DNA from: Onchidella celtica | Lineage: Eukaryota > Mollusca > Gastropoda > Systellommatophora > Onchidiidae | DNA: 64,000 nt | Reading direction: 5' to 3' | NCBI GenBank assembly: GCA_963931925.1 | Contig: OZ007574.1 | Span: forward strand, 34,334,461-34,398,460 | Shown: positions 14,950 to 58,159 of the stretch, piece by piece | Numbering within the stretch: the first letter of the stretch is position 1 | Layout: every line of letters begins with the position of its first letter | Made by a program: the position numbers and the translations under genes | Notes under the pieces: generated by a model | Database searches by the model: none | Told to the model about the DNA's origin: nothing | What the model saw: only the letters and a program-made list of their open reading frames with translations

Positions 14950-16890
14950 TTTATACGGAAAATTGGCCCAAAAATCCGACAAGATTGACGAAGAAGTCCA
15001 ATAAGTTGGCCCAAAAATCCAACAAGCCTGGGGCACAAGTTCAACAAGTTGGCCAAAAATTTTTTGACAAGTCTGATGCACAAATGCAACAAGGTGGCCG
15101 AAAAAAGTCTGACAAGCCCGGCACACAAGTCCGATAAGTTGGCCAAAAAATTTTGAAAGTTTGACTAACAAGTCCAATAAGTTAGCTGAAAAATTCCAAC
15201 AAGTCTGACAAGTTGGCCAAGAAATCCAACAAGACCGACACACAAGTCCAATAAGTTGGCCCAAAAATCCGACAAGTCTGACACACAAGTTCAACAAGTT
15301 GGCCGAAAAAAGTCTGACAAGTTGGATGCACAAATTCAACAAGTTGGACAAAAAATTCTGACATGTCTGATGCCCAAATCCGACCAGTTGGCCAAAAAGT
15401 TTTGACAAGTCTGACGCACAAATCCAACAATTTGGCCAAAAAAGGTCTGACAAGTCCAATGCACAAGTCCAACAAGTTGGACGAAAAATTCCGACAAGTC
15501 TGACGCCCAAGTCCGACAAGTTGGCCAAAAATATCCAAACAAGTGTGACACACGAATCCGATAAGTTGGCCAAAACGTTTTGATAAGTCTGACGCACAAG
15601 TCCAACATATTGGTCAAAAAGATTCCGAACGGTCGAATGTACAAGTATGACAATTTGACCAAAAAATAAATCCGACAAAACCAACACACAAGTCCAATCA
15701 GCTGGCCCAAAAATCCCACAAGCCTGACGCACAAGTTCAACAAGTTGGCCAGAAAAAATTTGACAAGTCTGACGCACAAATCCAAAAAGTTGGCTGAAAA
15801 CTGTCTAACAAGCCCGGCACACAAGTCCGATAAGTTGGCCAAAAAATTTGGAAAGTTTGACTAACAAGTCCAATAAGTTAGCTGAAAAATTCCAACAAGT
15901 CTGACAAGTTGGCCCAAAAATCCAACAAGACCGACACACAAGTTCAACAAGTTGGCCGAAAAAAGTCTGACAATTTGGATGCACAAATTCAACAAGTTGG
16001 ACAAAAAATTCTGACATGTCTGATGCCCAAATCCGACCAGTTGGCCAAAAAGTTTTGACAAGTCTGACGCACCAATCCAACAATTTGGCAGAAAAAATTT
16101 TGACGAGTCCGATGCCAAAGTCCAAAAGAGTGGCCGAAAAATTCCGGCAAGTCTGACACACAATTCTGACAAGTTGCCCAAAAAAATTTGACAAGTCTGA
16201 TGCACAAATCCAACAAGTTGGCCAAAACTGTCCGATAAGTTGGCCAAAAAGTTTTGACAAGTGTGACGCACAAGTCTAACATGTTGGTCGAAAAAATTCC
16301 GACAAGTCGAATGCACAAGTCTGACGAGTTGGCCCAAAAATCCGACAAGACTGACACACAAGTCCAATCAGTTGGCCCAAACATCCGGCAAGACTGATGC
16401 ATAAGTTCAACAAGTTGGCCAAAAAAATGTTGACAAGACTGACACACAAATCCAACAAGTTGGCCAAAAAAATCTGACAAGTCTGTCGCACGAATCCAAC
16501 AAGTTTACTGAAAAATTCTGACAAGTCTGACGGCACGGGTCCAACAAGTTGGCCAAAAAATTTTGAAAAGTCCAATACACAAGTCCAACAAGTTGGCCGA
16601 AAAAGTCTGACAAGACCGGGGCACAAGTCTGACAAGCCCAACAACTTTGCTGCAGAAGTCCAACAAGTGCGTCACACAAATCCGACAAAGCCACACTGGT
16701 GCGACAAATCCGACAAGTCATTCGCACAAATCCTACAAGTTTGACAAGTCCACCTCACAAGTCTGACAAGTTAGTGAAGTCCGACAAGCTTGTCAAAGAT
16801 ATTCAACAAGTCCGCTGCAAAGGTTCGACAAGTCTGAGAAATCCGTTGCACAAGTCCGACAAGTCTGATAAGTCTTTCGTAAAGCTTTGT
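14950..16890. repeat. ~41-bp satellite array with higher-order duplication
   Basis: About 45 diverged units have a consensus close to GACAAGTCTGACGCACAAGT followed by CCAACAAGTTGGCCAAAAA; unit length is mostly 38-44 bp. AACAAGTT and TTGGCCAA give partial inner symmetry. Near 15109-15430 and 15806-16085 a run of about seven units is nearly identical (start offset 697, end offset 653), so a block was duplicated and one unit was lost or gained. The minus strand is open over long stretches in more than one frame because the unit carries few stops. Unit length varies without keeping the frame, so I do not call it coding. Confidence 0.85.
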
Positions 16891-32800: not shown

Positions 32801-35800
32801 ATCATTTGATCATGTCCTGCGCTCAGGTCTGTATTTCTAGAGATCAAGAATTATTTGGACATTGTGATGTGAAATTGATTTTATTGAAGCTTTAACTGGT
32901 GATGAAAGATATGTAGTATGCCTTTTCCTGTAGTCACAGTTAAGTAAGTTTTATTCCCTACCTTAATTGCAGGTGACAACATTATCATTGGAAGCTACGA
33001 CAGCAGGCTGTGTTGGTTTGATCTTGACCTTTCAACCAAACCCTATCAGACTTTGAAGTAAGTAAGATTGTACATCTTATCCATGGAGGCAATCACTTCT
33101 TTTTTCTAAACATGAAAATTTGCATAATTTAAGGAAACCTCTTCAGAGTAAAGCAGTGTGAAGAAAATACTTTATTTATTGTGCTGTATATGTTCATGAA
33201 CTGTCAGGACCATTCTCTTTCACAAATTGTGGAGGCAGCATGGACATCTTTTGTAGACCTTCATTTGCTTTGTTGTAGGCAAAAGGTCGTGTCTTCTATA
33301 AGAAACTTTAATGCAGAACAACTACTAGCTAACAATTGTCCATATTTTTTCATCATGCCCATTCAGTTGGTCTACAGGGCAGGCACTCTTTACATTCAGT
33401 TTTACTACTGTGATCTGATTTCAAAATTAGTGTTAACTCACTGAAGACCAGCCCGCCAGGGCGGAACAACTCTTAAAGACCAGGGGTTTTGGGGGGTATT
33501 TCAAAAAATTCCCACAACCACATTTATTCACCAATCCATTCCATATTTTGACACATAACAGGTTTTAAATTGAACAATGCAAAAAACAAAACTTGAATAA
33601 ATTTATTCAGATAGTTTTTTTCATGAATTTTCAAAATTTGGCAAGTTTCTTTGTTTCGCAAAAATTTCTGGCCTTTGTGTATGGTACTGATGACCTAATA
33701 AAAATGTCAAAAAAATTGCATGAAAGTGTCACAAGTGTTTGAAAGTAGTGTTATTATTCACCTTAGTCAACAAGAACAAGACCTACTACTGGCTTTCAGT
33801 GCACTGGCCTTAGCCTTAGCACGATCGCTGGTACTGAGAGGGCTAGATCTAGAATCTGAGTCAGAATTTCCCTTCCCAGGCACGAATTCAGGATCTAGAT
33901 CTGAATTATAGGCTACATCTACCTCAGATTCATCACTGGTGTCTTCAAACAGCTGGAAAATGTTCGTTTTCTTGCGTTTTGAAGCCATTGTCTTGACTGG
34001 ATCTAGCGATCAGCTGTGACAGATCGCGCAACTGACGGAAGTTCTTATTTCGACCCGACATAGAGTGATAGTTTTTAAAAAATCGTTTTTAAAAAAGTTG
34101 CCAGCCGAACCCGGTGAAACTTTCAACGAAACAAGTCAAGATGTTAAACTGCCGCAGAGAACCAATCCCGTAAGCGTTGCGGGAACAGTGCAGGGGTTAG
34201 AAATTTTATTCATGTATCCTGCAGGCAACTCACATGGAATTCTCCAAATGGAAGAGACAAGAACCAAATAGACCATTTGATGATCAACGGTATGTGGAGA
34301 CGATCCCTTCTAGATGTGAAAGTGAAAAGAGGAGCTGACGTAGCCAGCGACCACCATCTAGTGGCAGCACTTATCAAAATTAAACTGAACAAGACCGGAA
34401 TCAAGACATCAAAGCAAAGACACCTTAATATTCAGAAACTGAGAGATGCAAGTGTTAGAAATGCCTTCAACATTAAAGTTAAGAACCGATTCCAGGCTCT
34501 ACGAGAGTCTGATAAGAACAACCCTAAAGAAAGAGGAATCGATTCAGAGTGGAAAAGAGTAACTACAGTGTACACAGAGAGCAGTGTAGCCTGCCTTGGA
34601 TTTAATGAGAAAGGGAAAAGCAAGGAGTGGATCCAACAAAGAACATGGGATGTGATCGAGGAGAGGAAAGTCATGAAAAAGAAACTCCTACAAGTGAAAT
34701 CGGAAAGGCTGAAAGAGAGGTACCAACATAGCTACACAGAGTTAAATAAGAAAGTGAAGAGACTAGTAAAGAAAGATAAACGAGAAGCCATGGAACAGCT
34801 AGCGGCAGATGCGGAGGAGGCAGTAGCAAGAGGAGAACAGGGTAAGCTCCACAAGATCACTAAGCGCATTTGTGGCAAGTACGGTGGAAGACCAAGTGTT
34901 CCAATCAAAGACAAGAATGGGAAACTACTGACTACAGAACGAGAACAGGATACACGCTGGACAGAGCACTTTCAGGAATTACTAAACCGGCCACCACCTG
35001 AAGATAGAATAATAATACAAGATGCTGCTGAAGACCTTGACATCAACATAGATCCACCAAAGAAAGAAGAGATAGTGGCAGCAATAAAGAGCCTAAAAAA
35101 CAGCAAAGCCCCAGGAAAAGACAACTTGACTGCAGAACTGTTCAAAGCAGATCCGGATCAGTCAGCCACCATCCTTCAGCCACTGTTCACAGCTATCTGG
35201 GAAGCAGAAGCAGTACCAAAGAGCTGGAATGAAGGCAGAATAGTGAAAATACCCAAGAAAGGAGCACTCAGCGATTGCAACAACTGGCGTGGTATCACTC
35301 TCCTTTCTATACCCAGCAAAATCCTTGCCAAGATCATTGTGCAACTTATGTCAGATGCTGTGGACAAGACACTGAGAAAGGAACAGGCCGGATTCCGAAA
35401 GGGGAAAGGATGCATTGACCAGATCTTCACACTCCGAAACATCATAGAACAGTGTTCAGAATGGCAAAGGCAGCTCTATGTGAACTTCGTTGACTTCGAA
35501 AAGGCCTTTGACAGCATCCACAGAGAGAGTATATGGCGCATTCTTCGGCACTATGGGATTCCCAGCAAGCTTGTTGAACTCATCAAAAGCTTTTACAAGA
35601 ACTTCAGTTGCAGTGTCGGAAACAGTGATGCATCCTTTGAAGTGAAAACTGGTGTACGGCAAGGATGTGTGATGTCAACAATTTTGTTTAACCTCGTAAT
35701 CGACTGGATTATGCGGAAAACTACAGAGGATGCACCAAGAGGCATCAGATGGACACTCTTCGACAACCTAGAGGATTTGGACTTTGCGGATGACCTTGCG

Positions 35801-38530
35801 CTATTGTCACATAGTCACCAACACATGCAAGATAAGACGCAGAGACTACATAATTTTGGATGCAAAGTAGGCCTTCGGATTAGCCAGAAGAAGACAGAGA
35901 TTATGACCCTAAATGTAGACACTCCAGCACCAGTGCAAGTAGATGACAAGAACCTCACCACGACGGACAAATTTAAATACCTTGGTAGCATTATCAGACC
36001 AGAGGGTGGCACAAAGGAGGACATCCAAAGTAGGCTGGGAAATGCAAGGGCTGTCTTTCAAAGTATGAGCAACATCTGGAAATCGACGCAATACGGCATC
36101 AACACCAAGATCAGACTGTACCAAAGCTGTGTCCTATCCACACTCCTGTATGGATCAGAGTGTTGGCGAATGACAGAAGGTGACCTCGCCAAGTTGTCTT
36201 CCTTCCACACCACATGTCTTCGTAGGATTCTCCGCATCTTTTGGCCAAACAAGATTTCTAATCAGGAACTACTAAGGCGATGCAAGCAAGAAGAAATAGC
36301 CAACATCATCACGAAGAGACGATGGAGATGGCTTGGACACGTGCTGCGAAAGGAAGCAAATTCTATAACCAAAACAGCACTTCAGTGGACACCGGAGGGA
36401 CGGCGCAAGCGAGGCAGACCCAAGGCAACCTGGCGGAGAACAATCGAGGCAGAGATGAAATCCTTCAATCACTCATGGGGAACTCTCGCAAAGATGGCCC
36501 AGGACAGACAGGGCTGGAGATCCTTTGTTGCTGCCCTAAGCACCAGTGGGTGCAACAGGAAATAGTAGTAGTAATCCTGCAGGCGGTGCGGGATTGGGCT
36601 TATGCGTCGATTCAGGTATCCCGCAACTTGTGCGGGAACGGGCGTCAGTGAGTTAAAGTTTAGTAATAAAATATCAGTTTAAGAAATATACAGAAAAGCA
36701 TTTTCTTTTTTCTGCATTTGTACATGAAAGTCCTTAATTTTCTCAAAACTGATTTTAAAGCATTAGAAAGTTCTTAATATTCAAAATTTGTCCAAAAGGT
36801 TTATAAAAAATCCTTAAAATACCAGATTGTCATGACTCCCTCTGCTATATTGCAGTATGGCTAGGTTTGCAATTTTTTTTTTTAAGTCTCGCCTTTATCA
36901 ATTTTCAATTCTTTAAAAATCTATTATTTCTGTCCCAAAAGCCTGCGGCAAGCCTGTTACAGAATTTTTTAAAGAAAATGCAATGAATGAACACTACTGC
37001 ATATATGTATTTACTGGTACTTATAGTTTATGTGTGTCACATCTTTCTCATTTATAGATAAATAATGATGACCCATCTTATAGGACTACACTTTTTATAT
37101 GGCATTATTGATTGCAGTGATGGTCAGTTTTGTTTGATTTATGTTCAAATCAATTTGTATTTAATTTTCCAGATACCATAAGAAAGCTTTGAGACAGGTG
37201 GCCTACCACAAACACTACCCATTGTTTGCCTCAGCTTCAGATGATGGTTCTGTTATTGTTAGCCATGGAAAAGTGTACAGGTGAGTTTTTGTGACATCTG
37301 AGGCCAGGCCGTATTAAGATGCAGCTGGCTATTTTTGGAAGGTTGGAATGATGTGTGGAAAATGTGGTATCTGACTGAAATTGTGTAATTAACCTGCGCT
37401 GTACGTTGCTGAAAACTAAGCATGGCATACGTTGTGTTATCTAGTTGACACCACACTCCTAAAAAACAATTATAATATTAGGGCACTCTCTAGTCTCTTT
37501 AAAGTCATGGTGTCTGTCAGACCCCAGACTGATGAATAGGGATATAACAATAAAATCCTCTTCAGACATGGGGCAGACTCACCCAATGTTTAATTTTGTC
37601 ACCTTTGTCCGACACTCAATGCTAAGTCAATGGTGACATGGTTGACCTCCTTTTCAATTAAAAAAATAAAACACATTATTTTTGTCTTGCTCGTAAGAGT
37701 TCACAAAGAATTGATATCGGACGAAGTTTGATGACTAAAAAAAGGAAAATGAGATGCTTGCATTATATTTATACCCCTCGAAAAAAAATTGAGCATAAGG
37801 TACGCCTACTTGACCTGAAAACTAAGAATTTTCAATGCCGTGACTCAATAAACCGTCATTTTATGGGTGGTCAAAGTTGGGGGTGTTGTGCAGTTTGCAA
37901 ATGGTAGCAAATTCGAGGTGTTTTTTTACTTTTGAAAATGCCATAACTTTCAAAGACTTTAAGACAGAATAATAAATTTGGTATCAAACTTCTTAGAAAA
38001 GTAAGCTCCATCACATTGGACAATGACTGGTGAGTTCAGATAAAAAGTAAAAATCAGTTTGGACTACCATTTTTAGAAAGTTGGAATCATGTGTGGAAAA
38101 TTTGATAATGAATGCTGTAATTAATACTAAACCTATTATGTTCTAGGGATGGGAATCTCAGAAAATTTGCCAATTTTCATATACTTTACATTCTTGGTCC
38201 CTAAGGTAAAAATATATCGGTGTTTGCTGTTGGCACTGATGCAGTACATCAAAATTCAGGAAATTTTTCTGTCAGTGGGTAACTAGTTCCCATCGCTGAT
38301 ATCGGTGGAGGAATTTCAGAATATCAGTACTATGAGGGAAATTATTTCAACTATTTTTTTGTTCGTAAATTTGCAGTGACCAGCTATTGAACCCACTTCT
38401 GGTGACGGTAAAGGTCTTGCGAGGACACAAGACAGCCAGCCATTTGTCTGTGCTAGATTGCAAATTTCATCCGACACAACCATGGGTTTTCTCCAGTGGA
38501 GCTGACAGTACAGTCAGGTTATTTGTCTGA
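20813..38530 (+). CDS. BOP1: BOP1, ribosome biogenesis WD40 protein (20 exons)
   Basis: BOP1 is the scaffold of the nucleolar PeBoW complex (with PES1 and WDR12; Erb1 in yeast), needed for 28S/5.8S rRNA maturation. Exons: 20813-20839, 22928-23020, 23444-23713, 24287-24438, 24881-24998, 25366-25467, 25863-25985, 26290-26400, 27151-27312, 27761-27841, 28299-28368, 29112-29244, 29570-29673, 30059-30147, 30690-30800, 31160-31234, 32439-32541, 32973-33057, 37173-37280, 38377-38530. All donors are GT, all acceptors AG, and all phases agree. The product is 756 residues, close to the usual ~750. Diagnostic strings are [66 protein letters not shown] and [13 protein letters not shown]. The start in exon 1 (AACATGGC, strong Kozak context) is inferred; the fallback is the in-frame ATG at 22937. 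It is intact, with no stop or frameshift. Confidence 0.96.
20840..22927. other. BOP1 intron 1
   Basis: The intron is 2.1 kb and ends in a long T-rich tract before AG at 22926-22927. Apart from the possible inverted-repeat element at 21281-22050, no feature could be supported. Confidence 0.45.
21281..22050. mobile_element. Possible transposon with short terminal inverted repeats in BOP1 intron 1
   Basis: The left end AACGCTCACCCTGCGCA with GCCCACTGCCC inside (21281-21319) pairs with GGGCAG and GCGCAGGGTGAGGGTT at the right (22016-22050), 16 of 17 bases over the outer part. The ~770-bp interior is non-coding and carries a smaller GTCAGTGACC/GGTCACTGAC pair. No clear target duplication is visible, so chance or an older rearrangement cannot be excluded. 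Confidence 0.4.
23444..27841 (+). other. BOP1: BOP1 N-terminal half: acidic region and BOP1NT domain
   Basis: Exon 3 (residues 41-130) is an acidic Asp/Glu/Ser stretch ending EYDSSDEE, as in other BOP1 proteins. Exons 4-10 (residues 131-413) form the BOP1NT domain that contacts pre-60S particles and partners. Its conserved blocks are [44 protein letters not shown] and [15 protein letters not shown]. Confidence 0.93.
31382..32176. mobile_element. Possible transposon in BOP1 intron 16
   Basis: CGAGCACGGGAAACTCGAA (31383-31401) pairs with TTGAGTTTCTCGTGCTCA (32158-32175) with two or three mismatches. A second small palindrome, AAACTCGAATTCCTCGG against GCCGAATTTCGAGGAAT, lies in the left arm. 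The interior has C, T and G homopolymers and a tRNA-like segment. No transposase frame or convincing target duplication is visible. It may be a composite of more than one insertion. Confidence 0.4.
31952..32049 (+). promoter_or_regulatory. tRNA-like A and B boxes (SINE head or tRNA relic)
   Basis: TAGCCGAGTGG at 31952-31962 fits the polymerase III A box (TRGYNNARYGG), and GGTTCGACGAATCC at 32036-32049 is a B box (GGTTCGAATCC) with a 3-base insertion. The spacing would suit a Leu/Ser-type tRNA ancestor. The rest does not fold as a tRNA by eye, so I read it as a degenerate SINE head. Confidence 0.35.
33767..33988 (-). pseudogene. N-terminal remnant of a piggyBac-like transposase
   Basis: The 73 codons start [20 protein letters not shown] and continue with an acidic Ser/Asp stretch containing DLDPEFVP. 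This style is typical of the disordered N-terminus of piggyBac transposases (PGBD family). The catalytic DDE/D region and the C-terminal Cys-rich finger are absent. It lies inside TTAA-flanked terminal repeats in the expected orientation. Confidence 0.6.
34216..34226. repeat. 5' target-site duplication of the LINE
   Basis: ATCCTGCAGGC is repeated exactly at 36574-36584, directly after the TAG-repeat tail of the LINE. Confidence 0.85.
34227..36565 (+). CDS. LINE polyprotein fragment: endonuclease tail plus reverse transcriptase
   Basis: The fragment is open from about 34232 ([15 protein letters not shown] in frame) to TAG at 36563-36565. The end of the APE-type endonuclease is visible as SDHHLV (34346-34363). 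Reverse transcriptase blocks follow: [28 protein letters not shown] (35487-35516), GVRQGCVMS (35651-35677) and the catalytic FADD in [10 protein letters not shown] (about 35780-35810). The C-terminal part has [13 protein letters not shown] and GRPKATWRR (about 36414-36440), common in invertebrate endonuclease/reverse-transcriptase proteins. No RNase H is seen. The start Met and most of the endonuclease are missing, so this copy cannot be autonomous. It lies in sense orientation within BOP1 intron 18. Confidence 0.9.
34227..36573 (+). mobile_element. 5'-truncated non-LTR retrotransposon (LINE) inside the piggyBac element
   Basis: The 2347-bp element begins within the endonuclease domain and ends in a short TAG/GTA repeat tail. 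It is flanked by 11-bp direct repeats (34216-34226 and 36574-36584). 5' truncation plus a simple-repeat 3' tail and target duplication is the hallmark of target-primed reverse transcription. The reading frame is still open from the truncation point to its stop, so the insertion is young. The clade (RTE-, Ingi- or CR1-like) is not settled by eye. Confidence 0.9.
36574..36584. repeat. 3' target-site duplication of the LINE
   Basis: Exact copy of ATCCTGCAGGC at 34216-34226. The sequence after it (GGTGCGGG and on) continues the interrupted piggyBac element to its right TTAA. Confidence 0.85.
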
Positions 38531-43868: not shown

Positions 43869-46800
43869 TTACAACTGTTTTTCTGATGCTGCTAATGTTT
43901 TAGAACTTGAAATGGATGCAGCTCTTGTCTTTTTCACAATACATCCAGATTCTGTAAAAATGTATCCCTCTGGGAGACTGTCTGAGAGATGTGACAGATT
44001 GGTTGGTAATGTGAAAAATTTGTTCAGTTTGCCACTTTGTAATTTATTTCTTGCTGATGATCTCAATGCAAACTGAGCCCTGCTTTTGCATGAACTGCCT
44101 GGTATAAATGAGGATAGGTTAAGGCTTGTCCCACCTTCTTTGGCCGTTTCCCTCCCTGAATATTTCACTTGTGACATATCAGTTTCCATGTTTTGCTTTG
44201 GAATTTGATTCTTGCCTGCTCTTTTAAGATTAATCTTCTTGACTTGAGAAATGTGACTTTCACTATCAATAGCTCTTCCACTGATATTTTCAGCCTTGAT
44301 GATTTCCCCTCTCTGTGAGACAGAGTAGCCCAGGTGTCCCAGGCTTTGAAAGAAAGTAGATATCTCATCATTTTCCAGATCAAAATCAGAGCATTTTTGT
44401 AGCAGTGGGCCAGTCCTTTTACTCAAACTATCATCAGCTAGTTCTGCACACTGATCATAACATCTCAGAGTTTTATTACTGCATGTGTGAATAGAGGACC
44501 CATTAGAATACGAGGTGTGAGGGCTGGTAAGTGATTTACGCCTGAGCCTGTTGCCTTGTAAACATTCTTGATTTGCCATTTTACACTCATGAGAGACAGT
44601 TTTCTCTTCCAAGTTTCCAAATGATAATGATTCCCCTAGTCTGGAAACAGCCACTGCAGGACTTTCATGGACAACTTGAAAGTCAGGTTTCTCTGCAGCA
44701 ACAGACCCCCTTCCGTTTGATGTTTGTTTGACAATACACCAGTCTTGACCCAAAGTGTAACCATGCTTGTCCAAAACCTGCGCAATTTCATTTTGTAATG
44801 TGATCTCCTTTGCATTTTGTCTCAGATTGATGCTCACTCTATCAGGTTCTGAATGTTCCAGAGGTTTTATGACCTCTGATCTTCCTTGGGGTATTCTTGG
44901 TATGCTATTCTGACTAACATCACCATGGCTTGAACATGAATATGCAGAAGTAATGTCCAAGTTTAAACTAGGAGTCTGACTTTGAAAATGATGTTCCTCA
45001 ATTGAGCTTGCTGCTGTCTGAGGCATGTGCTGTTCTGCCTCATTGTTTTGCGTAAAACAATTTTTTAAGTTAGGATGTGACGATGAATCTTCCGAGGGGG
45101 CAGATCCTGCATCAAACAATGATTCCTGATGGCCATGGTTCTGTTCCTGATTGGAAAGCAATGTGGGATCACTACCCTCATCAACATTTATGCTCCCCAT
45201 TTCTCTGCAGGCACACTCAGAGGTAGATACTGAAATATCCATAAAATCTTCAATCATGGGCATAGAAAGCATAATATCTTCAATCATGGGCACAGGTGAT
45301 GTATTATAAATTTGTGGACAATCATTACTGGTAGCTGAAAGGTCAGTTCTCTGTTTCTCTAACTCACAAGGAAATGGTAAAATCCATGAATAACCAGGCC
45401 CAGGCATGGCCCTGGCTTTACAGAATTTATTGATAAAATAAGGATTGTTCTCCCATCTCTTTTCTTCACTAAGCTGGCTCTGTTGAGCTTTCAGAGCAGC
45501 AAAACTTGTTGATACATCCATGCTGGCTAGAACTGGACCCTTTTGTGTCCTTGCTTTACTCGGGTTTGCTTTTAATTCAGTCCCCAGTTTAGGCTTCCAT
45601 TTTTTCTTTATCTTGATACTGCTTGCATTCTTTCTGTGTAACATACGTTGTCTTTTTTTTTTCATCTGCTGAATGCCAGCAATTGTACAACTTGTGTTGT
45701 CAGTGACTGTCACTTTGGCCAGTACTTGTGGTCTTTGACTGAGACTGTGTTCAAATTCTTCCAAAGACATTACAGTGACACACTGGTCATTGGTTGGATT
45801 TTCCATACTTGTCTCTAACACCTTCAGAGGTGGCAGTTTGGAAGGCCTCCCTCGTTTTTTGACAGGAATAGTATGGGAAATCTGTGTTGGTTTTACTCCC
45901 TGTTGTGTCTGGACTGTGGGCATGAGTTCTACATCATCATGAACAGAGGCCACAGTAAACGAATTGCTAGAGATGGCATTGGTAATACATGTATTTGCAA
46001 AAGAAGGATCAGATGTTTGTGGTTCCAAATTTGGTGATATGTTTGATTTCTGTTGAATTGTTGCTGACAACACTGCTATGGGTAAAGGTCTTGACAACAC
46101 TGTTGTGGGTAAAGGTCTTGACAACACTGTTGTGGGTAAAGGTCTTGACAACACTGTTGTGGGTAAAGGACTTGACAACACTGCTATGGGTAAAGGTCTT
46201 GACAATACTGTTGTGGGTAAAGGTCTTGACAACACTGGTGTGGGTAAAGGACTTGTCAACACTGTTGTGGGTAAAGGACTTGGCAATACCGATGTGGGTA
46301 AAGGACTTGAAAACACTGTTGTGGGAAAAAGACTCGACAATGCCAAAATAGATGATGCTTCAGGCTCTGCCAGTTTAGTTAGTACTGGTACAGGATCTTG
46401 GATTTGCTTTTCTACTGCTGTCACTTCCCTTGTTGTACTTGGAGTTGTTTGACAAAGTGCTGCCAGATCCGAATCTGAAGGGACTATTTGGTAATCTAAA
46501 CTGGATGAAGATGTCACTGAAGACACACAAGATAGGTCAGTTGAATCAGAAACTGTGGGCGTAGGTGGTGCCACCTCTGGGTTTCCAAGTGCTATCAGGT
46601 GATCAAAAGTTGGAAATTCTCCATCATCTGTATTATTATCTCCACTCTCTTCATGATTACTGATCTTACTGAAATGAACAGACAGATCTGCAGTCTCTGT
46701 ACAAGGATTTTCGACCGAAGCATTGTGAGTAGAAACACCTTCCACTGAAGCTTCAAGACTCCCGCAGCCACTATTGAAATTTCTTACACAGCCTTCAAGT

Positions 46801-49800
46801 GATCTCTCTTTGGATATCACATATGTGTCATCGGTGAGCATGTGGCCCACATCAGTGAGTTTAACAAAGCAGTCTTTGAACGTGAAATGTTCACAGTGTT
46901 CAGGAAGTTTAATATGATGGGGAATAAATCCTTTACTAGATTTCTTGATCCTAGATTTCAAATACCATTCACGTGATAACTTGTTCTCTAGGATTTTAGA
47001 AACAGGCAAGTGATGCTGCAAGCGCATTTTACTTGTTATTATCTTAATACTTGATTTTCTTTTGTTAGTATTTTGACCAGCTGGACAGACAGGATGCCTG
47101 TGACCAGGATTCTCATCACTTTTTACAGGAGATTTTGTCCTTCTGCTGCTTTCCTCATTACTACCCACACTTGCATCCTCATTAGCCAAAGCTTCCTTTG
47201 TCACATTTACTTGAGTCGGTCCTGTGCGGAGAAGATCCTGACCCAAATGCAACAGATTATCCTGGGGCTTCGGTGTCTCAAGCTCCACTATAGAGCGATC
47301 ACGAACAGGACTTTTAGTCTTCCAAACAACTTTGAATGGAGATTTAGAAATCTGCTCCATGACGACCACACTATCTGGTTTCAATTCAGAGGGGTCAAAT
47401 TGTGGATATAATCTCTCTTCCACTTTGTCACTGGTCACATTGTCTGTGGGATAATCAATGCTATTACAGTTTGTCATCTGCGTCTCTACGTCGTCAAGAA
47501 TCACTGAAGTATTGTTACATGTATATGTTTGGTCAAGTGCTGTGGATTGAGAGTATTTGAGTGCTGTGGGTTGTGAATGGTTGAGTACTGTGGATTGTGG
47601 CTGGTAGAGTGCTGTGGATTGTGGCTGGTAGAATGCTGTGGATTGCAGGTAGTGGAGTTCTGTGGATTTTGGGTGGTTATGTGCCCTGGATTGAGGGTGG
47701 TTGAGTGATGTGGATAGTGGGTGATATTGTTCCATGAATTGTGGCTGGTTGAGTGCTGTGGATCTTGGGTGTTCGAATACTGTCGATTGCAAGTTGCAGA
47801 GTGCTGTGGATTGTGGGCAGTTGAGTGCTGTGGACTGCGGGTGATCAAGTGATGTGGATAGTGGGTGGTCAAATGCTGTGCATTGCTGGTGGTCGAGAGC
47901 TGTGGGTGGCTGAAGATGACAAACATCCATGCCAGTGTTTGTCAGGCTGGTGGAAAAGCTATAACCTGTATCCAAGTCTGCATACATGAGAGCATCAACA
48001 CATGACTCTGGGCAACTCATTGGTAGCTCCTGAAACATTTCCAAATCGCCTTCAATAACATTTCTCTGGTTGTCTCCTTTACGGATGCCAACTTCTGCCT
48101 CCCTTTCATTGTTACAGATAACCATTTGCTGTTGACGTTCTGATTCTGTGAGACTCGTTTGCCATTCAATATTTGCATCCATGGGATGCTCATGAAACAT
48201 TCTGATATATCCGTCCACATCATCATCATACATTTCAAAGTCACTTATGCTACAAATGGGCTTTGGCCTGTCGGCAGTAAGTTGCACATCACTGGTAAAA
48301 CTATTTGCATCTCTATTTTCATTAAGGGATTTCAAACTTGTTTCTGCATGTGCTATAGGCCATGAAGCACCAAAATTGATATCAGTGGTTAACCTGGGCA
48401 CAACACTGAAATGATTGCATGGTAGACTTGCGGCATAGTCAGACTGACTAACAGTCATACTTAAGTCTGTGAATGTTTTTTCATTAGTCTTCTGTCTGCC
48501 AACAACTGTCTCATCCACAAATGTTTGCCTAGTAAGTGTGTCCCCTCTAACATCTTTTTGATCATCAAAGGGTAATCTGACATTCTGCATCACACACAAC
48601 TCATGGATTTCTGAAGGGCAAAAATATGTATCTCTGCCAAATACTTCTTGATTTACAGCTGTTTCCATGTTCCTATCTATGCCATGAAGAGCAGGCTTTT
48701 CATTAGCAAATGAGTTACCAGTTTGAAAGACAGTTCGAGCCTCGTCAGGCATTATTTGCTCATTGGTATTTGTGTCATTGGTTTCATAGCTCAGGTAAGT
48801 ACCCTGCTGCATAAACGTCAAGTTTGTGTTAAAATCTCTGCGTTCTTCAGTGCTGTCATTATCTGAGTCTTTGTTGGTGTTATACAAATCTGTCAGGTTT
48901 TGTGAATTACATTCTGCACGAATCTCTTGTACTTCCTCTACACCTGCTGTGTAGCTCAAACTTTCAAATGCAAGATTTGTATGACCAATACAACTTTCCT
49001 TGTCAAAACTGGTTTCATTCTTATCTTGCACCTTGTCATCGTGTATTTTATCAATATTTGCATTCACATTGTTAGATGCCTGATGTTCAGGTTCTTCCCT
49101 GCTAATATCTGTTGGACAAACTGTCTTTTGTTTTTCGTAATCTGTGAACATCAGTGAAATTCCAGTGTTGACATCTGAGTGGATCACTGGGGTATCCTCA
49201 TCCAAGAGTGGATTATCAACCGGTATTTCTTGGTCAACATCAGAATGATCAAATGGCATGTCTTCCTTCATACCATTGGCAACATTCAACCTCTTGTCAA
49301 TATCTTCAAAATTACTTGACATTTCCCTATCAATAGAACTCTGACTTCTTGGTTTCACAAGTGAAATATCTATAGGACTATCAAGTACAACTTGCTCAGT
49401 ATCTGCATGTCTCAATGGGAAATTCTTATCCACATGACCAAGGGCACAATGTTTGTCTTCTTCAGTGAGCTTTGTCCTATTCACATCACTGGGACGAGGT
49501 CCCATGTCTGTGTGAAAGAGTTCTGAACATGCAGTTTCTGAGGAACTGATAGTTTCATCACTGCCATCTGACTCCAAATCTGACTGGGTTTTGTCCTCAT
49601 CTGTATTATTTGAATTAAGATCTATAATTTTATAATCTCGATCATCAACACTGCTATCCAAATCTGTTTGGAGTCTGTCTTGATCTATGCAATTTTGGTC
49701 TAGGTCTCTGATGAAGTGAGCTGCATCTAACTGGATATGATTTTCTTTAACACTGCAAGTTTCTAAGCCAGCTGAGATATTATTTTCTGTTTGAAAGTTT

Positions 49801-52800
49801 GCATCCATTTGGCCTAAGGCATTTTCTCTAACAATTGTTTCCGAGTAGATATACTTACATATTGTACCATTTGTTTCTTCACTTCTATCCATACAATCAT
49901 ACTGGATACCTGTACCTGCTTCTGAAAGAGCAAGCTGTTCATCTGCGACTGTATTAATATTTGTCTGGACATTACTTTTCTCAAAATTAATTTCTTGAGT
50001 CACACTTTGTACCAGAAGTCCTGTCTCCAAATTTGTCTGCACGCATTTGCCTTTATTATCCATCTTCTCCTTATGGCTCTTTATGACTGGTGTGTTAGAT
50101 ACACCTCTGTTTGAGTGTGTAACAGTAGTCACTGATGTATTAGTGTCCATATCAACAACAGGCATATTCGATTCATCATTGTTTGTCTGTTCACTGTTTG
50201 AGCATTCAAACAGAGTTGTACATGTATTTTTGTTCATACTTATGATCAGACCAGTGGATGAGTTACTGACTGAGTGAGTAACAAGGGTCACAGATGCATA
50301 ATTGTCCACTGAAAGTGTAACTGGTGCCTCAGAGAGGTTATAGTCTGGAGTCATAGATACATTACTGCCCACTGGGTGTGGGACAGGGATCATGGGTACA
50401 TGATTGTCCACTGAGTGGGTAAGAGAAACCTTAGGTATATTATTGTCCACCGAATGTGGAACAGGAGTCACAGGTACATTACTGTCCACTGGGTGTGGGA
50501 CAGGGGTCCCAGGCACATTATTGTCCACTGAGTGTGGAACAAGAGTTATGGGTACATTATTGCCCACTGGGTGTGTAACAAGAGTCTCTGGTTCATTGTT
50601 GTCCTCTGAGTGTGTAACAGGAGTCTGGAGTACAAAATTATCCACTGAGTTTATAACAGGAGTATCAGGTTCATTATTGTCCAATGAGCGTGTGACAGGA
50701 GTCACGGGTACACTAATGTTCATCGAGTGTGGAACAGGCATCTCAGATACATTACTGTCCTCTGGTGGTGTAATAGGTACATTAATGTCAACTGAGTGTG
50801 TAGCAGGAATCATGGGTGGATTATTGTCCTCTAAGTGTGGAGTCACACGTACATTATCATCCTCTGAGTGTGTAAGAGGAGTCACTGATATATTATTGTC
50901 CATTAAGTGTGTAAGAGGAGTCACTGATACATTAGTGTTCACTGAGTGTGTTACAGGAGTCACAAGTACATTATTGTCCACCAAGTGTGTAACAGGAGTC
51001 ACAGGTGCATTATTGTCCACCAAGTGTGTAACAGGAGTCACAGGTGCATTATTGTCCATCAAGTGTGTAACAGGAGTCAAGGGTACATTATTGGCCACCA
51101 AGTGTATAACAGGAGTCACAGGTACATTATTGTCCAAGTGTGTAACAGGAGTCACAGGTACATTATTGTCCACCAAGTGTGTAACAGGAGTCACAGGTGC
51201 ATTATTGTCCACCAAGTGTGTAACAGGAGTCACAAGTACATTATTGTCCACCAAGTGTGTAACAGGAGTCACAGGTGCATTATTGTCCACCAAGTGTGTA
51301 ACAAGAGTCACAAGTACATTATTGTCCACCAAGTGTGTAACAGGAGTCACAGGTACATTATTGTCCACCAAGTGTGTAACAGGAGTCACAGGTATATTAT
51401 TGTCCACCAAGTGTGTAACAGGAGTCACCGGTACATTATTGTCCACCAAGCGTGTAACAGGAGTCACAGGTGCATTATTGTCCACCAAGTGTGTAACAGG
51501 AGTCACAGGTACATTATTGTCCACCAAGTGTGTAACAGGAGTCACAGGTACATTATTGTCCACCAAGTGTGTAACAGGAGTCCCAGTAACATTGTCCATC
51601 AAGTGTGTAACAGCAGTTATAGGTACATTATTGTCTGCTGAATGTGTAACAGGAATCTCAGGTGCATTATTATCCACTGAGTTTATAACAGGAATCTCAG
51701 ATACATTACTGTCCAATAAGTGTGCAGCACGAATCTCAGGTATGTTATTGTCCACAGGACATGCAGCAAGAGTCACAGATACTTCACTGTTCTCTCCTGT
51801 GACTGGCTGGCTGGATGTGTAACTGTCTAAGTGTGTAACAAGACTCTCAGGTACATTGTTGTCCACAGACTGTGTATCAGGAGACACAGGCTTGCTACTG
51901 TCCACTCCTGTGTCTGGGCTATCAAATGTGTCTTTGATTGAGTGTGTATCAAGAGCCACTGGTATAGTACTGTCCAGTCCTGTATCTTGAAACCTGCACA
52001 TGTCATAGGCATAATGTGAAACAGTACTTACATGGATGCTACTTCCTTTATCTGTGCACGGAGTTTTGGGTGTGAATTTATTTCTTTGTGCATTTGGAGC
52101 CAATCCGTTGTCATGAACGTCATGTGTTACTAAAATTTTGGATGAGTCTGCACTCATGTCGTTGTCAGAGCCCCATAACTTAAATTTTAATGTCTCACTG
52201 TTATAGCTAACACATGTCTTCATATGTGGAAACAGATCTTCGGTTCGATTACTGTTGGTCACAGTTGTAGTATCTTTCACATTCAAATTTCCTGGTGTTC
52301 TATCTAAAGTTTGCAAAGAAGCTTCTCTTCCATCTTTCTGCATGGACAGGTTCTCCGAAGGTTTGTCACATTTCTGGGTTGGACTCGTGGTTGGCAGTGT
52401 AACATAGGGGTCCTGCTCTGAATATTCTAAAGTAAGATTCTTGGGTGCTTCATCATTCAGTACAATTGAACTACCTACAGTTTGTTCAACATCTTTTGAT
52501 ATAATAGGACTAGCCTCTGTTGCAAGTTTCTGTACAAATACTTCATCAGCTGACACCCGGAACTGAACAGAAGTGGAACTCGGATTTCCATTTTTCATAT
52601 AGTTAAGAGATTCCCGTCTTGTACCTATTACTCCAGCAGAAACCATCTGCTTGCCTGAATGCTGTACGTGGCATTCCTTGGATAGCTGACTTTTCATTTT
52701 CTCAGATGATGAACTTCTCCTTTTCCTAGACTTTACCTGATGCTTTCCAAGTTGCTGGCTTTCATGATCAGTTTTTGCTGAAACACAGCCTGAAGACACA

Positions 52801-55800
52801 GTAAAATTTCCTGGAACCCGAGAATTGGATCTAAGCTTCCTAGTCATCAAAGTCTCACAACTGTGTTGGAAATGCATTGATTCAATGCCCAGGCTTGGAT
52901 CAACTGCAGGACTTTGGAGTTTCCTAGAACGTGTGGTTCTCTGTGTGATGGATGAATGGCTTGGCATAAAATGTCCCCCTTCTGGTGTAACAGATTCCAC
53001 TGCGGTTGACTGAAGTGGGTAAGAATGCACGTAGCTTTTTGATGCAGTTTTCTGTCCTTTTATAGAAGGATTTTCCAAGATCTGCTGGTCAATCTTTTGT
53101 CCAACGGTGATGATTTCAGATTGTTTCTGGCATCCTGAATCTTGTGGTGGTGACAAATGAATCTTTCTAGGTCGATCCTCTTTCTTTCTTGTGATGAGGG
53201 TCTTAGGTCTTTCTGAGCTTTCCAAAGATGCATCAGTGAAATAATCATTGAAGTCAGCCTGATCAGTGAATTTTTGGTCAAACATGGATCTCAAAGGGGT
53301 CACCCCTAACCATTTTGAACTGCGGGTTTTCATAGCATGCTGTAAACTTGTGTATTGGTCTATATGGCATTGAAGTTTTTTCTTCCCTACTGAGGGCCTG
53401 GGCTCAAAAGTCCCAGCTGGAACTGTTGCATTATTGATAATCATTATATTTTCATCATTTCTAAATTGATGCTCAACCTTCCTTGGTCTCCCAACTCTCC
53501 TTTTCTGAGCACTAGTTTGATGTATTGCACTGGGTCTCTGCTGGCAATTTATCTTTTCTTTCTTGGGGGATAAACTTTTAGGCTCCCTAAAACTGTTTTT
53601 GGTTTTCTCTGGTTGTCCTTTGTTTCCATTAGCCGTAAATTTTGAAAGTTGCAAATGCCTCTGATCATTGCCTCCTTCTGTGGACTTTTCAAAGGGAAAA
53701 TGACTTTCCAAGACCTCCTTCTGACTTTTTCTTGGTCTTCCAACTTTTTTTTTAACTATTACATTATATGACTTTGTCCCAACATCTAAGGAATTTGATC
53801 CGTCTTTCAAAGTAACTGACTGCTGAGATGAAACTAAACTTTTAGATAAACACTTTTGTGTTTTCTTTGGTAATCCTGTTTTTCTCTGCCCAGTATCAGC
53901 TTTTTCATCTGAATGTTTTCCAGTGTTATTTCGCTCTTGGCAAGATTTGTTCTGTTTAATCCTCTTTGTTTGAGGATGTAAAAGACAATTATCCTGTGTT
54001 GTTTTTTGATGATTCCCTTGTGCTGATTTCTCTATGTTTCTACTGCCTTCCTTTGGCTGGCAGTCTTGCCATGTTTCAACATCTGACACTGCAGGAAATG
54101 CAATTTCAGCCTCAGAATTGAGTTCTGTACTCACGGTTTCACAGAATTCATACGACCTCTTTAGGGCATCATGCTGAACTTCTGGCACTTCTTTGCTTCT
54201 CTCTTCATTTTTCCTTCTCAAACTTCTACGAGGAACTTTTTCGTATGTACCTCTGTCACTCTTTTGCATTGTGCATGTCTCAGTTTCCACCACTTTCTGC
54301 ATTTCATCATGATATCTTTTTTTCAAGGAGGGCATTTGTTCATCATGGCTAGATGAGACATGCTTTCTTGCCAGAAATTTACTGATATTCTCCTTTTTTT
54401 CTGACAGGCTGGATGGCTCCAAGAAGCAACCTTTTACTTTCTTGCCAGTCTTTTCTAAATTAAATGTTATCCCAGAATCTTTACTGACTAGACAAACGCC
54501 GATGCCAAATATGGTCCCAAGTTTAATGACTTTTGGAGCTGGCGACTTTCCATCTTTTCCCATAATCATACATGAATCAAACTGTTCATGCTCAAATGCG
54601 TCTTTTAGTTCTGGCTGACCAGTGAAGTTTTTGGGATGCTTATCAACAATATCAGCACCAATAGTTGGGGCACTGGAAACACTCAAATCTTTATGCTGCT
54701 CTCTGTCCCTTCCATCTAAATCTGTAGACACCTGGTGACTCTGAACTGAAGGCTGGTGCTCTGTATTTTTCAGGCTGGTAATATCTTGGTAAACATTTGC
54801 TTCTTCAACTTGGCTGCCCAATAAAATTAGGTGGGGACTCTGCTCTATTTCCTGAGAGGTTAAGGAATGTTCTTGGCTATCCGATGACAAAGAAGCAATA
54901 GTAGTACATGTATTTATATGACTTCTTATGGTTGAGTCATCTTGAGTTCCATCTTGATGACTGGCATATACATTAGAATACCACTCTTGATGACTAGGGG
55001 TGTCGGCGGTACTCTGTGGACTGCAAGTATCTCTGTGATACGAGTCATTTGGATGAACATGCAGATGCTTGTCCTGATGACTGCCCTGTTGTAAACCTGG
55101 GTTTGAACTTACAGCAGAGCCAATAAATTTGGTTCTGCTTGTGAGCAACTCTGAAAAGTCACTATACAAATAGTCACATAATTTTTTTAGTTTCGTGTCC
55201 AGGGTGCTGTCAGGCAAATTTTGATGCATAACCGATTCCCCATGCATACAAGTCTGCCCACTTTTGCTTGTTTGAAAACTTTCTGCGTTCCTTTCGGAAT
55301 CATTTGACGTCTGTTTGTACAAAAAGTTACAATAAGCCTCGTCCTGAGATGACACTATATGAACATTTACAGCTGTAGATGATTCACATTGGTTCACTTC
55401 CTGTAAGTTACAACTATTGGAGTTTGAATTTTGGGTCTGATGCCACCTTGTAGTTGTACATCGTGGATTATCATGGCTCATGTTGCTATTGAAGGTATTA
55501 TCATTTTTGTTTCTCGACTCATAAAAGAAATGCTCTGCAGAAAGGGCATGTAAGCCTGACACTTGCTCCCTATTAATTCCTGAGAAAGCTGTAATGTGAG
55601 GATATCCTGACTGGCAAGACTGACTTGTATTTCTATTTGGTTTTCTCATGTGCATAATTTCCACTGAACCTTCACCGTTGGAAAATTTGTCCCGTTGCTC
55701 ATGCAAAAGAGTAGATTCTTGTGGATACAATCCTTTCTCATTAGTGAATTCTGAAGGACTATAATCAGTTCCCAAAACCAGAAGACGATGATCACTGAAA

Positions 55801-58159
55801 GGGCTCTGAGGATCTCTTTGTGCCTCTTTTTCACCATATACTGGCTGTGCATCAGTTGCACATTCAATGTTGGTCTGATGGTCCGACTCAATAATACTGT
55901 GCAACAAGACCTCTGCAAAAGACTCCTCATTATTGGCCCTTATGGAAGTATTGCTGTGGTCCTGAATCTCATTTGTAGTATGAAATTCAGTTTTGTTATC
56001 CTGCTGTTCGTTGGCCACGGAATCCAATTCTTTTTCCACATGTTGCAAGGCAGTAACTTCATAACTTGCTCTCTTGTCACCTGCTGGGTCAGAAGTAGTT
56101 CCCATGTAATTTCCTGTTATTTCTGGGAAATGTGGAAAGTGGTCTGGATTATAAATAAACTCTGAAGTACCATCAGTTTTCAGCCCTTTGTGGCAACGCT
56201 GAATGTGTAACCGTATATGTGTATATTTTCTAAAAGACTTTTTACACAGTTCACAAACATATGTGTAAAAATCTGAATGATATATCCCAATGTGAGTCAA
56301 AAGGTGGTCCAGTTCTTTCAACCGAAATGAGCATATAGGACAAGGAAATGTGCGTGTAACATCATGAACTTTCGTATGATTTTTCAGATTACCTGCTGTT
56401 TGAAAAACATTTCCACAAATTGTGCATGAGTATTTCTTGCTATTTCTGTGTTTGCTCATATGCTGTCTATAACCTGTTTTGCTACTCAGCACTTTGCCAC
56501 ACACAGAACAGGGAGGTATGGTGCCCCTTTCTCTGTGTTCCCTCAAATGTTTTGTAAGACGATATTTATCTTTGTAACTTCTTTGGCAGGTATCACATTT
56601 ATATTTGGGTGAAATCACATGCACAGCCATGTGTTTCAGGAGATCTGAGTTGGTTTTGCATTTCTGTTGACAATTTGGGAACGTACAAGGATATTTTCGC
56701 ACATCTGAATGGCTAAGCTCATGGTTTTTAATTTCAAACTTTGTTCTTGCCTTGAAACCACAGGAGTCACAGGTGAAATTTTTCTGACAATCATGAGTTC
56801 CTGCATGACTTTTGAGGGTGAATTTACATTTAAATCTTTTATCACAAAGTGAGCATGAAAATGGTCTGTTTTCTGTATGAGATTTCAGATGTTTATCCAG
56901 ATTACTTTTCCATTTACTGCGAAAGGGACAAAGGTGGCAGCTGTATTTTTTATAAGAAGAGTGCACACGTGCATGTTTGATGACATCAACTTGATGTCTT
57001 GCTGTAAAGGAACACTCATCACAACTGAATGGTTTCTCCCCTGTATGTTTTGTTTCATGTTCCAAAACTCTGAGCATGGAACAATGCTTAAAAGAGCAAA
57101 ACTGACATGTGTAATTGTCTCTTTTCAGATTCTCATGGGCAGCTTCATGTTCTATGACAATGTCGACATGCTTGAATTTGAGGCAGCAATACTTGCATCT
57201 ATAGGATGGGATGAATAAAAGATGAATTAGACATGATAACTCACTTTAAGGAGTTTTTCTTTCAAAATAAAATTTAATAATTTGAAATTAACAACTGATG
57301 CTATCCTGTGTTGGCACTGAAGAATGGGATACTAGTTCACACAGAAAAGTTTATTGTCAAATATAGAAGTATATATTATTATTTACTTGTAAAAACCTTT
57401 TCATTATGCCACAGAATTATGTAGTTCTGTGTGTGCAAACAGAAGGCTCCCATTAAGAAAAAAAGTTATCAGACCAAAAACCTTCTTTGGAATGTTAGCA
57501 CTTTCATAAATGTTCAAATATCAAATACAATGAGGCACCAGTATTGTCTTGTTTCTCCCAATATCTACATATTTTTTAATAATATTTAACAAAATTAATT
57601 TGTTTAAACTGTATAATTTATGTTGTGCAAGAAGACATTCATTAATGACTGACCAAAAAAAAAAACTGCTTTATCTCTCAGATTTACCCACTTGCATGCC
57701 CAAGTAGCTAGAATGTAGAAATACGGAGAGTAAAATGTATACATCTTGGAGATGAGTGCACATTTACCACAATCATAACATTCAGGCTATTCAAACCCCT
57801 AAGGTATCTGTTAACGAATGTGGAAAATTTTTTTAACAAACAATGAACCTGTAAAATAGCTGCCCTGTACTGTCCTCATCCTGCTTCTGACTGAGTGCAT
57901 CTCCATCTTTCTCATCCCTCTGCGAAGCTCCAACACTTCTCCCACCCTCAGTACTGGCAATGGGATTCAAAAGTCTATCTGCTGTGCTGGTTCCATTACA
58001 AGCCACTTCAAGGTTTGGATTCCCTTCTTCATTGTCAGTCCCATTGTTGATTTCATCACTGTTATCATCACTACTATCTTCTGATGAAGAAAGGGGCTCA
58101 GATTTGACATGAGTCGAAAGTTCCTCCCTTGACAGTGTTGCCAAATGTTCCTCATCCAT
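43869..58159 (-). CDS. Giant C2H2 zinc-finger and AT-hook protein, ortholog not recognised
   Basis: Model: coding exon 1 58159-57849, 650-bp intron 57848-57199, exon 2 57198-43869; about 4546 residues. The junction TAC AG|GT...AG|A TGC restores an Arg codon and completes the first finger (YRCKYCCLKFKH). Exon 1 is acidic and Ser-rich (SEPLSSSEDSSDD). Residues about 103-441 hold 12 C2H2 fingers, some with TGEKPF-type linkers and one with the wider C-x4-C spacing (CTFPNC). AT-hooks follow: VGRPRK at about 1257 and 1339, a weak DRPRK between them and 1500, and KKRGRPSK at about 3887. The rest is a long polar tail with three tandem-repeat arrays. A nuclear DNA-binding, probably regulatory role is inferred from fingers and hooks. 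The ATG (58159) has A at -3 and G at +4. An acceptor-like AG at 58170-58169 suggests an untranslated exon further upstream. Confidence 0.85.
43900..44800 (-). other. Threefold GY..G-IVK motif at the C-terminus of the giant protein
   Basis: Three segments look related: HGYTLGQDWCIVKQ (residue about 4254), LGYSVSQRGEIIKAE (about 4394) and EGYIFTESGCIVKKT (about 4521). Each has Gly-Tyr, a short variable stretch, Gly or Asp-Trp, then a hydrophobic-hydrophobic-Lys end. The first two are preceded by a helical-looking EI..(V/F)(L/Q) segment. This may be a small repeated fold. I do not recognise it. Confidence 0.35.
46070..46345 (-). repeat. 27-bp (9-residue) tandem repeat in the giant protein
   Basis: About ten units of PLPTTVLSR with substitutions (SSPLPTSVLP, RPLPIAVLS), at residues about 3722-3814. 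On DNA the unit reads GGTAAAGGTCTTGACAACAC on the plus strand, then TGTTGTG. Confidence 0.9.
47520..47900 (-). repeat. 30-bp (10-residue) tandem repeat in the giant protein
   Basis: About a dozen diverged units around LNHPQSTALY (variants LNQPQFMEQY, LYQPQSTVLN, LKYSQSTALD), at residues about 3207-3331. It is rich in Gln, Ser, Thr, His and Pro. Units are more diverged than in the 9- and 13-residue arrays, so this array is older or under less homogenisation. Confidence 0.85.
50290..51720 (-). repeat. 39-bp (13-residue) tandem repeat in the giant protein
   Basis: About 35 units of THLVDNNVPVTPV, at residues about 1940-2410. The central units (about 50940-51600) are almost identical; the flanks are diverged (HSVDNNVPGTPVP, NSVDNNAPEIPVT). 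The array is a multiple of three and the complement lacks stops, so the plus strand shows a spurious 472-codon frame across the same DNA. Confidence 0.95.
56178..57198 (-). other. Twelve-finger C2H2 block
   Basis: Fingers run in order from CKYC...HEAAH to CELC...HIQRCH. Most have C-x2-C-x12-H-x3-H; finger 7 has C-x4-C and fingers 11 and 12 have H-x4-H or similar. The linker HTGEKPFSC occurs between fingers 2 and 3, HTENRPFSC between 4 and 5. The lack of KRAB, SCAN or BTB sequence in the visible exons fits a lineage-specific invertebrate factor. Confidence 0.92.
57199..57848 (-). other. Intron of the giant zinc-finger gene
   Basis: On the minus strand the intron begins AG|GTTCATTG and ends CATCCTATAG|A. 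It is AT-rich and holds nothing else I can support. Confidence 0.7.

What the first reader, a model, noticed from the sequence alone, without database searches (positions are those of the whole stretch)
43869..58159. A ~4546-residue zinc-finger protein encoded almost entirely by one 13.3-kb exon
Very large single coding exons are rare. The open frame runs 13,209 bases from its first internal ATG without a stop and joins cleanly by an in-phase splice to an acidic first exon. Twelve C2H2 fingers and AT-hooks sit on a long polar tail built partly of tandem repeats. I cannot match it to a known family, so it may be a lineage-specific giant regulator or chromatin factor.
Basis: partly seen in the sequence, partly recalled or inferred. 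Interest (0 to 1): 0.8.

Follow-up and report, generated by a model that had tools for sequence, protein, structure and literature searches.

The report
Giant single-exon zinc-finger regulator gene
An animal genome carries an apparently intact gene for a very large DNA-binding protein, almost all of it in one unbroken 13.3-kb exon; genes built this way are already known, so it is a striking but probably ordinary member of a known kind.

Summary
On the minus strand, a 311-nt acidic coding exon (58159-57849) joins by a predicted GT-AG, phase-2 splice over 650 bp to a 13,330-nt exon (57198-43869). Together they encode 4546 aa with no internal stop. Codon bias favours this frame in 19 of 22 windows. 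There are 12 C2H2 fingers in one tandem block (aa 105-440), three exact AT-hook cores, and a long Ser/Thr-rich tail with three in-frame tandem arrays. I add a feature not in the finding: a GY-x(7)-[IV][IV]K motif present three times near the C-terminus.

Most likely it is a nuclear, sequence-specific DNA-binding regulator of chromatin or transcription with a largely flexible tail. Function is inferred, and no transcript data exist here. A finger array on one large exon behind small N-terminal exons is the usual poly-zinc-finger plan (PMC2604467). Human ZNF469 (3953 aa, single exon) and SACS exon 10 (11,487 bp) show that exons of this size occur.

Family membership and lineage-specificity could not be tested: no animal proteome was searchable, and the genome and structure machines did not complete. 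I file it as a new member of a known kind.

The parts
57849..58159 (-). Coding part of the first coding exon (aa 1-103 plus two bases of codon 104). Acidic: 25 D+E and 7 K+R in 103 aa; holds a VKSE site fitting the SUMO consensus
   Evidence: ATG at 58159. A CAG acceptor-like sequence 9 nt upstream (read by eye) hints at a non-coding exon before it. No Pfam match above cut-off
57199..57848 (-). Predicted intron, 650 bp, GT...AG, phase 2; G+C 0.300, stops in all three frames (15, 12, 18)
   Evidence: no cDNA
43869..57198 (-). Giant exon, 13,330 nt including the TAA stop; last base of codon 104 to aa 4546
56190..57197 (-). 12 tandem C2H2 zinc fingers, aa 105-440; 9 of 11 inter-finger linkers have 7 residues (others 9 and 8), one is TGEKP
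   Evidence: Pfam PF00096 1.4e-15, PF13465 8.9e-14
53718..53744 (-). AT-hook core VGRPRKSQK (GRP at aa 1257)
53469..53495 (-). AT-hook core VGRPRKVEH (GRP at aa 1340)
53160..53180 (-). Degenerate AT-hook-like DRPRK (about aa 1445)
   Evidence: lacks the G of GRP
50347..51755 (-). 39-bp tandem array, about 36.7 units of 13 aa, consensus VDNNVPVTPVTHL; diverged copies reach upstream to about aa 1869
47536..47905 (-). 24-bp tandem array, about 15.4 units of 8 aa of the type HPQSTALN
46065..46340 (-). 27-bp tandem array, about 10.2 units of 9 aa of the type PLPTTVLSR
45831..45860 (-). AT-hook core KKRGRPSKLP (GRP at aa 3887)
44727..44762 (-). C-terminal motif copy 1, GYTLGQDWCIVK, aa 4250-4261
44295..44330 (-). 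C-terminal motif copy 2, GYSVSQRGEIIK, aa 4394-4405; an IKAE overlapping its end fits the SUMO consensus
43932..43967 (-). C-terminal motif copy 3, GYIFTESGCIVK, aa 4515-4526

Best explanation
It is an apparently intact animal gene for a giant nuclear C2H2 protein that regulates transcription or chromatin. Shown by sequence: a small acidic exon that joins in phase to one 13.3-kb exon, 12 tandem fingers with mostly canonical spacing, three AT-hook cores and a long Ser/Thr-rich tail with in-frame repeats. Inferred: the finger block reads a long, specific major-groove site; the AT-hooks add grip on A/T-rich minor groove; the acidic N-terminus, the tail and the three C-terminal GY...IVK motifs recruit partners; and the tandem arrays are loosely constrained spacers that grew by unit duplication inside an exon with no domain boundary to stop them.
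For: Open frame and codon bias along the exon. 12 of 12 pattern matches lie in one block, with 9 of 11 linkers of 7 residues. Finger block strongly basic, 63 K+R against 29 D+E; exon 1 acidic, 25 D+E against 7 K+R. Three GRP cores against a shuffle mean of 0.0035. FoldIndex negative in 2882 of 4496 windows. 7 of 7 repeat rows in the exon have periods divisible by 3, against 2 of 12 rows in the minisatellite at 14963-16636. Uncorrected pN 0.171 and pS 0.205 between 27 repeat units, i.e. weak constraint. [quoted passage not shown] Genes with long internal exons are enriched for nuclear functions (PMC9825244, abstract and section 6), though the exon here is the last coding one, not an internal one.
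Against: No expression, binding or orthologue evidence. C2H2 arrays can also bind RNA or protein. Short motifs (AT-hook, SUMO) in a 4,106-residue tail can be non-functional. 1614 of 4496 FoldIndex windows are not negative, and these include most of the 13-aa array (aa 1904-2207) and the stretch holding the 9-aa array (3651-3879), so 'disordered spacer' is not shown by that crude measure. No WRPW, eh1 or NuRD-type motif was found; 2 CtBP-like and 4 HP1-like matches were found and not tested against chance.
Confidence: 0.72

Rival explanations
1. A CTCF-like or su(Hw)-like insulator/architectural protein: the multi-finger block marks boundaries and the tail scaffolds loops.
For: CTCF is the best PDB hit of the exon 2 product (1.1e-27); similar number of fingers (CTCF 11 and su(Hw) 12 are recalled).
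Against: The CTCF match has no fixed register: a piece from finger 4 on aligns about as well to CTCF 266-353 (44.1 bits) as to 351-456 (42.9 bits), so it reflects general C2H2 likeness.
Confidence: 0.1
2. A mobile-element silencer: a fast-evolving poly-zinc-finger repressor that binds transposon sequences, as KRAB zinc-finger proteins do in tetrapods (recalled).
For: Long tandem array on one exon; poly-ZF genes are described as putative transcriptional repressors (PMC2604467, start of abstract, passages).
Against: The fingers differ from one another and only 1 of 11 linkers is TGEKP, unlike young KRAB arrays (recalled); no other C2H2 pattern in six frames of the window, so no cluster within 64 kb. 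Copy number in the genome could not be tested.
Confidence: 0.1
3. The frame is not one exon: one or more of the repeat arrays is an unrecognised in-frame intron, or the gene is only transcribed as smaller units.
For: No cDNA here; [quoted passage not shown] The codon model does not favour the frame in 3 of 22 windows.
Against: Codon bias in the coding frame in 19 of 22 windows and 0 stops in 22 of 22; repeat unit lengths divisible by three.
Confidence: 0.06

Closest known systems
ZNF469 (human)
   Same: Giant C2H2 protein (3953 aa) from a single exon; about 74% disordered with many low-complexity stretches (PMC12226416, abstract and passages; PMC3925994, passages)
   Different: 7-8 fingers mainly near the C-terminus; here 12 in one N-terminal tandem block. 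No relationship tested by sequence.
ZNF292 (human)
   Same: 16 fingers, 2723 aa, the last of 8 exons is the largest; transcription factor (PMC12329236, passages)
   Different: 8 exons; size about 60%; finger layout differs (recalled)
Poly-zinc-finger (KRAB/SCAN/BTB) genes
   Same: Fingers on a single large exon behind small exons with N-terminal domains (PMC2604467, passages)
   Different: No KRAB, SCAN or BTB domain by Pfam; a 4106-residue tail after the fingers
CTCF
   Same: Long tandem C2H2 array, best PDB hit
   Different: No common finger register
ZFAT
   Same: Zinc fingers plus AT-hook (recalled)
   Different: A ZFAT chain is only the 35th row for fingers 11-12 (best 60 of 183 shown) and is absent from the best 60 of 211 for finger 5
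SACS exon 10
   Same: Comparable exon and protein size: 11,487 bp, 4579 aa, called the longest exon among vertebrates in PMC8745260 (passages)
   Different: Unrelated multidomain protein, sacsin

Membership tests
C2H2 (Krueppel-type) zinc-finger proteins | C-x2-4-C-x12-H-x3-5-H repeats in tandem | tested here: met
   12 matches, aa 105-440; PF00096 57.2 bits against a cut-off of 25.2
C2H2 (Krueppel-type) zinc-finger proteins | Sequence-specific nucleic-acid binding | not testable with these tools
   Needs a binding assay
Poly-ZF genes with single large finger exon | Fingers in one large exon, small N-terminal exon(s) | tested here: met
   plan described in PMC2604467; splicing predicted only
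KRAB/SCAN/BTB poly-ZF | KRAB, SCAN or BTB domain | tested here: not met
   No such Pfam match at E<=1 in aa 104-4546 or aa 1-103 (only RPC5_C at E 0.081, 13 bits, below its cut-off of 27); an unseen upstream exon is not excluded
CTCF | Collinear match of the finger array | tested here: not met
   Near-equal scores in two registers for a four-finger piece
ZFAT | Best match to ZFAT fingers | tested here: inconclusive
   Row 35 of 60 shown, none of 60 shown; that PDB holds only pieces of ZFAT is recalled
ZNF469 | Sequence homology outside the fingers | not testable with these tools
   No ZNF469 hit among the PDB rows shown and no Pfam family for it; finger number and place differ from the papers
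AT-hook proteins | GRP core flanked by basic residues | tested here: met
   3 exact GRP[RKS]K cores; DNA binding not tested

The most novel reading that the evidence does not exclude
A lineage-specific giant architectural DNA-binding protein whose 12-finger block reads a composite site of up to about 36 bp (3 bp per finger, established rule), and whose triplicated C-terminal GY-x(7)-[IV][IV]K element is an undescribed partner-binding module, so that one protein could bridge distant sites.
Probability: 0.12. Interest if true: 0.55.

Novelty: new member of a known kind. Interest (0 to 1): 0.3.

Why it matters
If it is expressed as predicted, its coding exon is longer than the precedents met here (SACS exon 10, 11,487 bp; ZNF469, 3953 aa), and it is a clean natural example of exon growth through in-frame tandem repeats in the tail of a DNA-binding protein. 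Gene predictors may break such exons, so the gene may be mis-annotated (inference). It does not change the understanding of zinc-finger genes by itself.

Tried and rejected
Orthologues: the search for related loci with the finger block in viral contigs (20 pattern matches, 0 confirmed) and genome contigs (37, 0 confirmed); both collections are viral or prokaryotic, so this says nothing about animals. Family by PDB sequence: the best hit changes with the fragment used. CTCF leads for the exon 2 product and for fingers 4-7, HIC2 for finger 5 alone, and Aart for fingers 11-12 (Aart is recalled as a designed protein). I therefore rejected any family assignment from these. Those tables show the best 60 of 98, 220, 211 and 183 sequences. 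The C-terminal 997 aa gave nothing below E 0.84 in PDB.

The C-terminal motif was found by eye first, so its shuffle count (GY.{6,8}[IV][IV]K: 3 observed, mean 0.0065 and maximum 1 in 2000 shuffles) is post hoc. Single-copy phmmer links copies 1 and 3 only weakly (i-E 0.13 and 0.32) and does not link copy 2, which prefers an unrelated stretch at i-E 1; the profile built from all three matches them by construction.

The antisense frame 50404-51822 (472 aa) was set aside as a mirror of the 39-bp array. A self-BLAST returned no usable rows and was replaced by tile-against-tile phmmer, which outside the arrays showed only further copies of the 13-aa unit. For the pN/pS count, 3 of 30 inter-anchor intervals not 13 residues long were dropped.

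Literature: the listings (the best 7-15 rows each) gave precedents and did not show this protein; no claim is made that it is absent from print.

Full report
What was checked. The finding names 43869-58159. On the minus strand an ATG-initiated frame runs 57077-43869, 4402 codons. The same frame is open upstream to a splice acceptor at 57199/57198 (CATCCTATAG|ATG). It joins in phase 2 to a donor at 57849/57848 (TTTTACAG|GTTCAT) of an exon with ATG at 58159. The joined CDS is 13,641 nt and gives 4546 aa. Exon 2 carries one stop, its own TAA, against 440 and 206 in the other frames of the strand and 218, 167 and 259 on the other strand. Among 100 first-order Markov sequences trained on the exon, the longest open stretch was 215 codons. 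Codon usage learnt from the rest of the exon puts this frame first in 19 of 22 windows of 600 nt. The three exceptions are the window with most of the fingers (a near tie), a stretch with part of the 8-aa repeats and the last window, each without a stop in frame. Downstream of the stop all three frames fill with stops (29, 30, 28 in 1.5 kb), and AATAAA occurs at 43283 and 42181. This is a real and apparently intact coding exon. Its transcription was not tested.

Anatomy. The exon 1 product is acidic (25 D+E, 7 K+R in 103 aa) and holds a VKSE site that fits the SUMO consensus. Twelve C2H2 fingers follow at aa 105-440; they are the only matches to the pattern in six frames of the 64-kb window. 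Linkers are 7 residues in 9 of 11 cases and 9 and 8 in the others; only one is TGEKP. Finger 7 has four residues between its cysteines. The block is strongly basic (63 K+R, 29 D+E). No further finger lies in the 4106-residue tail, one fifth of which is Ser or Thr (821 residues). Three exact AT-hook cores lie at aa 1257, 1340 and 3887, and a degenerate DRPRK at about 1445. FoldIndex is negative in 2882 of 4496 windows of the whole protein. This is a crude measure: it lists only two foldable runs in the finger block, which is certainly folded, and of its 21 foldable runs several cover most of the 13-aa array (1904-2207), 3651-3879 with the 9-aa array, and 969-1030, 3539-3582 and 4043-4098. Disorder of the tail is therefore likely but not shown.

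Repeats. Three tandem arrays lie in the exon: 39 bp x 36.7, 24 bp x 15.4 and 27 bp x 10.2. All 7 rows for them have periods divisible by three, and the frame stays open through them. In contrast, 2 of the 12 rows for the minisatellite at 14963-16636 have such periods. Between 27 units of the 39-bp array the uncorrected pN is 0.171 and pS is 0.205. So the unit is at most weakly constrained at the protein level, as expected for a spacer; homogenisation of the array makes this a rough figure.

A feature not in the finding. The last 300 residues carry three copies of GY-x(7)-[IV][IV]K: GYTLGQDWCIVK (4250), GYSVSQRGEIIK (4394) and GYIFTESGCIVK (4515). Composition shuffles give 0.0065 on average for the slightly looser pattern tested, but the pattern was written after seeing the copies. 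Single-copy profile searches do not link them significantly (best i-E 0.13; copy 2 is not linked at all). I regard it as a probable short linear motif. No PDB relative was found for the 997-residue C-terminal part (best E 0.84).

Family. Pfam finds only C2H2 models above their cut-offs in the exon 2 product; a REST-type finger model scores 17.5 bits, below its cut-off of 27. The exon 1 product has nothing above a cut-off. PDB hits are generic. CTCF leads for the exon 2 product, but a four-finger piece fits CTCF about equally in two registers. A single finger prefers HIC2, and fingers 11-12 prefer Aart. ZFAT, a zinc-finger/AT-hook protein (recalled), is only the 35th row and absent from the 60 rows. 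No eukaryotic proteome was available. The searches of viral and prokaryotic contigs found no relative, as expected. The search of the window's own genome did not complete (10 attempts), nor was structure prediction (6 attempts).

How ordinary it is. [quoted passage not shown] ZNF469 is a single-exon human gene for 3953 aa, about 74% disordered, with 7-8 fingers (PMC12226416, PMC3925994, passages). ZNF292 has 16 fingers in 2723 aa, and the last of its 8 exons is the largest (PMC12329236, passages); that this exon holds all the fingers is recalled, the passage does not say so plainly. SACS exon 10 has 11,487 bp (PMC8745260, passages). Long internal exons tend to encode disorder and nuclear proteins (PMC9825244, abstract and section 6); the exon here is the last coding exon, so that comparison is indirect. 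The present exon is at or above the upper end of these examples in length, not outside them in kind.

Mechanism. Most likely (0.72) a nuclear regulator: the finger block gives site specificity, the AT-hooks add affinity for A/T-rich DNA, and the acidic N-terminus and long tail recruit partners; the arrays are spacers. The DNA-binding modules are shown by sequence; binding, nuclear location and partners are inferred. Rivals are an insulator role (0.1), a transposon-silencing role (0.1) and a wrong exon model (0.06).

Surroundings. On the plus strand at about 25.8-28.0 kb lie pieces of BOP1 (BOP1NT fragments in two frames, both below the cut-off; PDB BOP1 at 6e-5 for one of them), so that BOP1 and the giant gene point towards each other, with a LINE-type reverse transcriptase frame between them. 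Other genes between them are not excluded.

Noticed in passing
6204-10616 (+): A second long open frame (1470 aa) made of 27-aa (81 bp) and about 58-aa (174 bp) tandem repeats of the type NPGFLSLGGLLNADRETDNTTQPENG; periods are divisible by three and the codon score is best in this frame (0.225, next 0.193 on the other strand). Pfam lists PDCD10_N at 22.4 bits (cut-off 19.8) but with no stretch that passes on its own, probably a repeat effect. Possibly a large exon of a repetitive protein.
   Followed up: partly
25833-27955 (+), possibly on to about 32.6 kb: Pieces of BOP1, the ribosome biogenesis factor: BOP1NT fragments in two frames below Pfam's cut-off, PDB BOP1 E 6e-5. Frames at 30633-30875 and 32292-32558 look like its WD part by eye, but Pfam found nothing in them.
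   Followed up: partly
34148-36562 (+): 805-codon open frame of a LINE-type reverse transcriptase (RVT_1, E 1.3e-39), without internal stop.
   Followed up: partly
14963-16636: Large minisatellite of 44-45-bp units with 89- and 133-bp higher-order periods; open frames there are probably repeat artefacts.
   Followed up: no
50404-51822 (+): 472-codon open frame antisense to the 39-bp array of the giant exon; probably a by-product of a stop-free repeat unit.
   Followed up: partly
44295-44762 and 43932-43967 (-): Triplicated GY-x(7)-[IV][IV]K motif in the C-terminal 300 residues of the giant protein; no match to a known motif was looked up beyond Pfam and PDB.
   Followed up: partly
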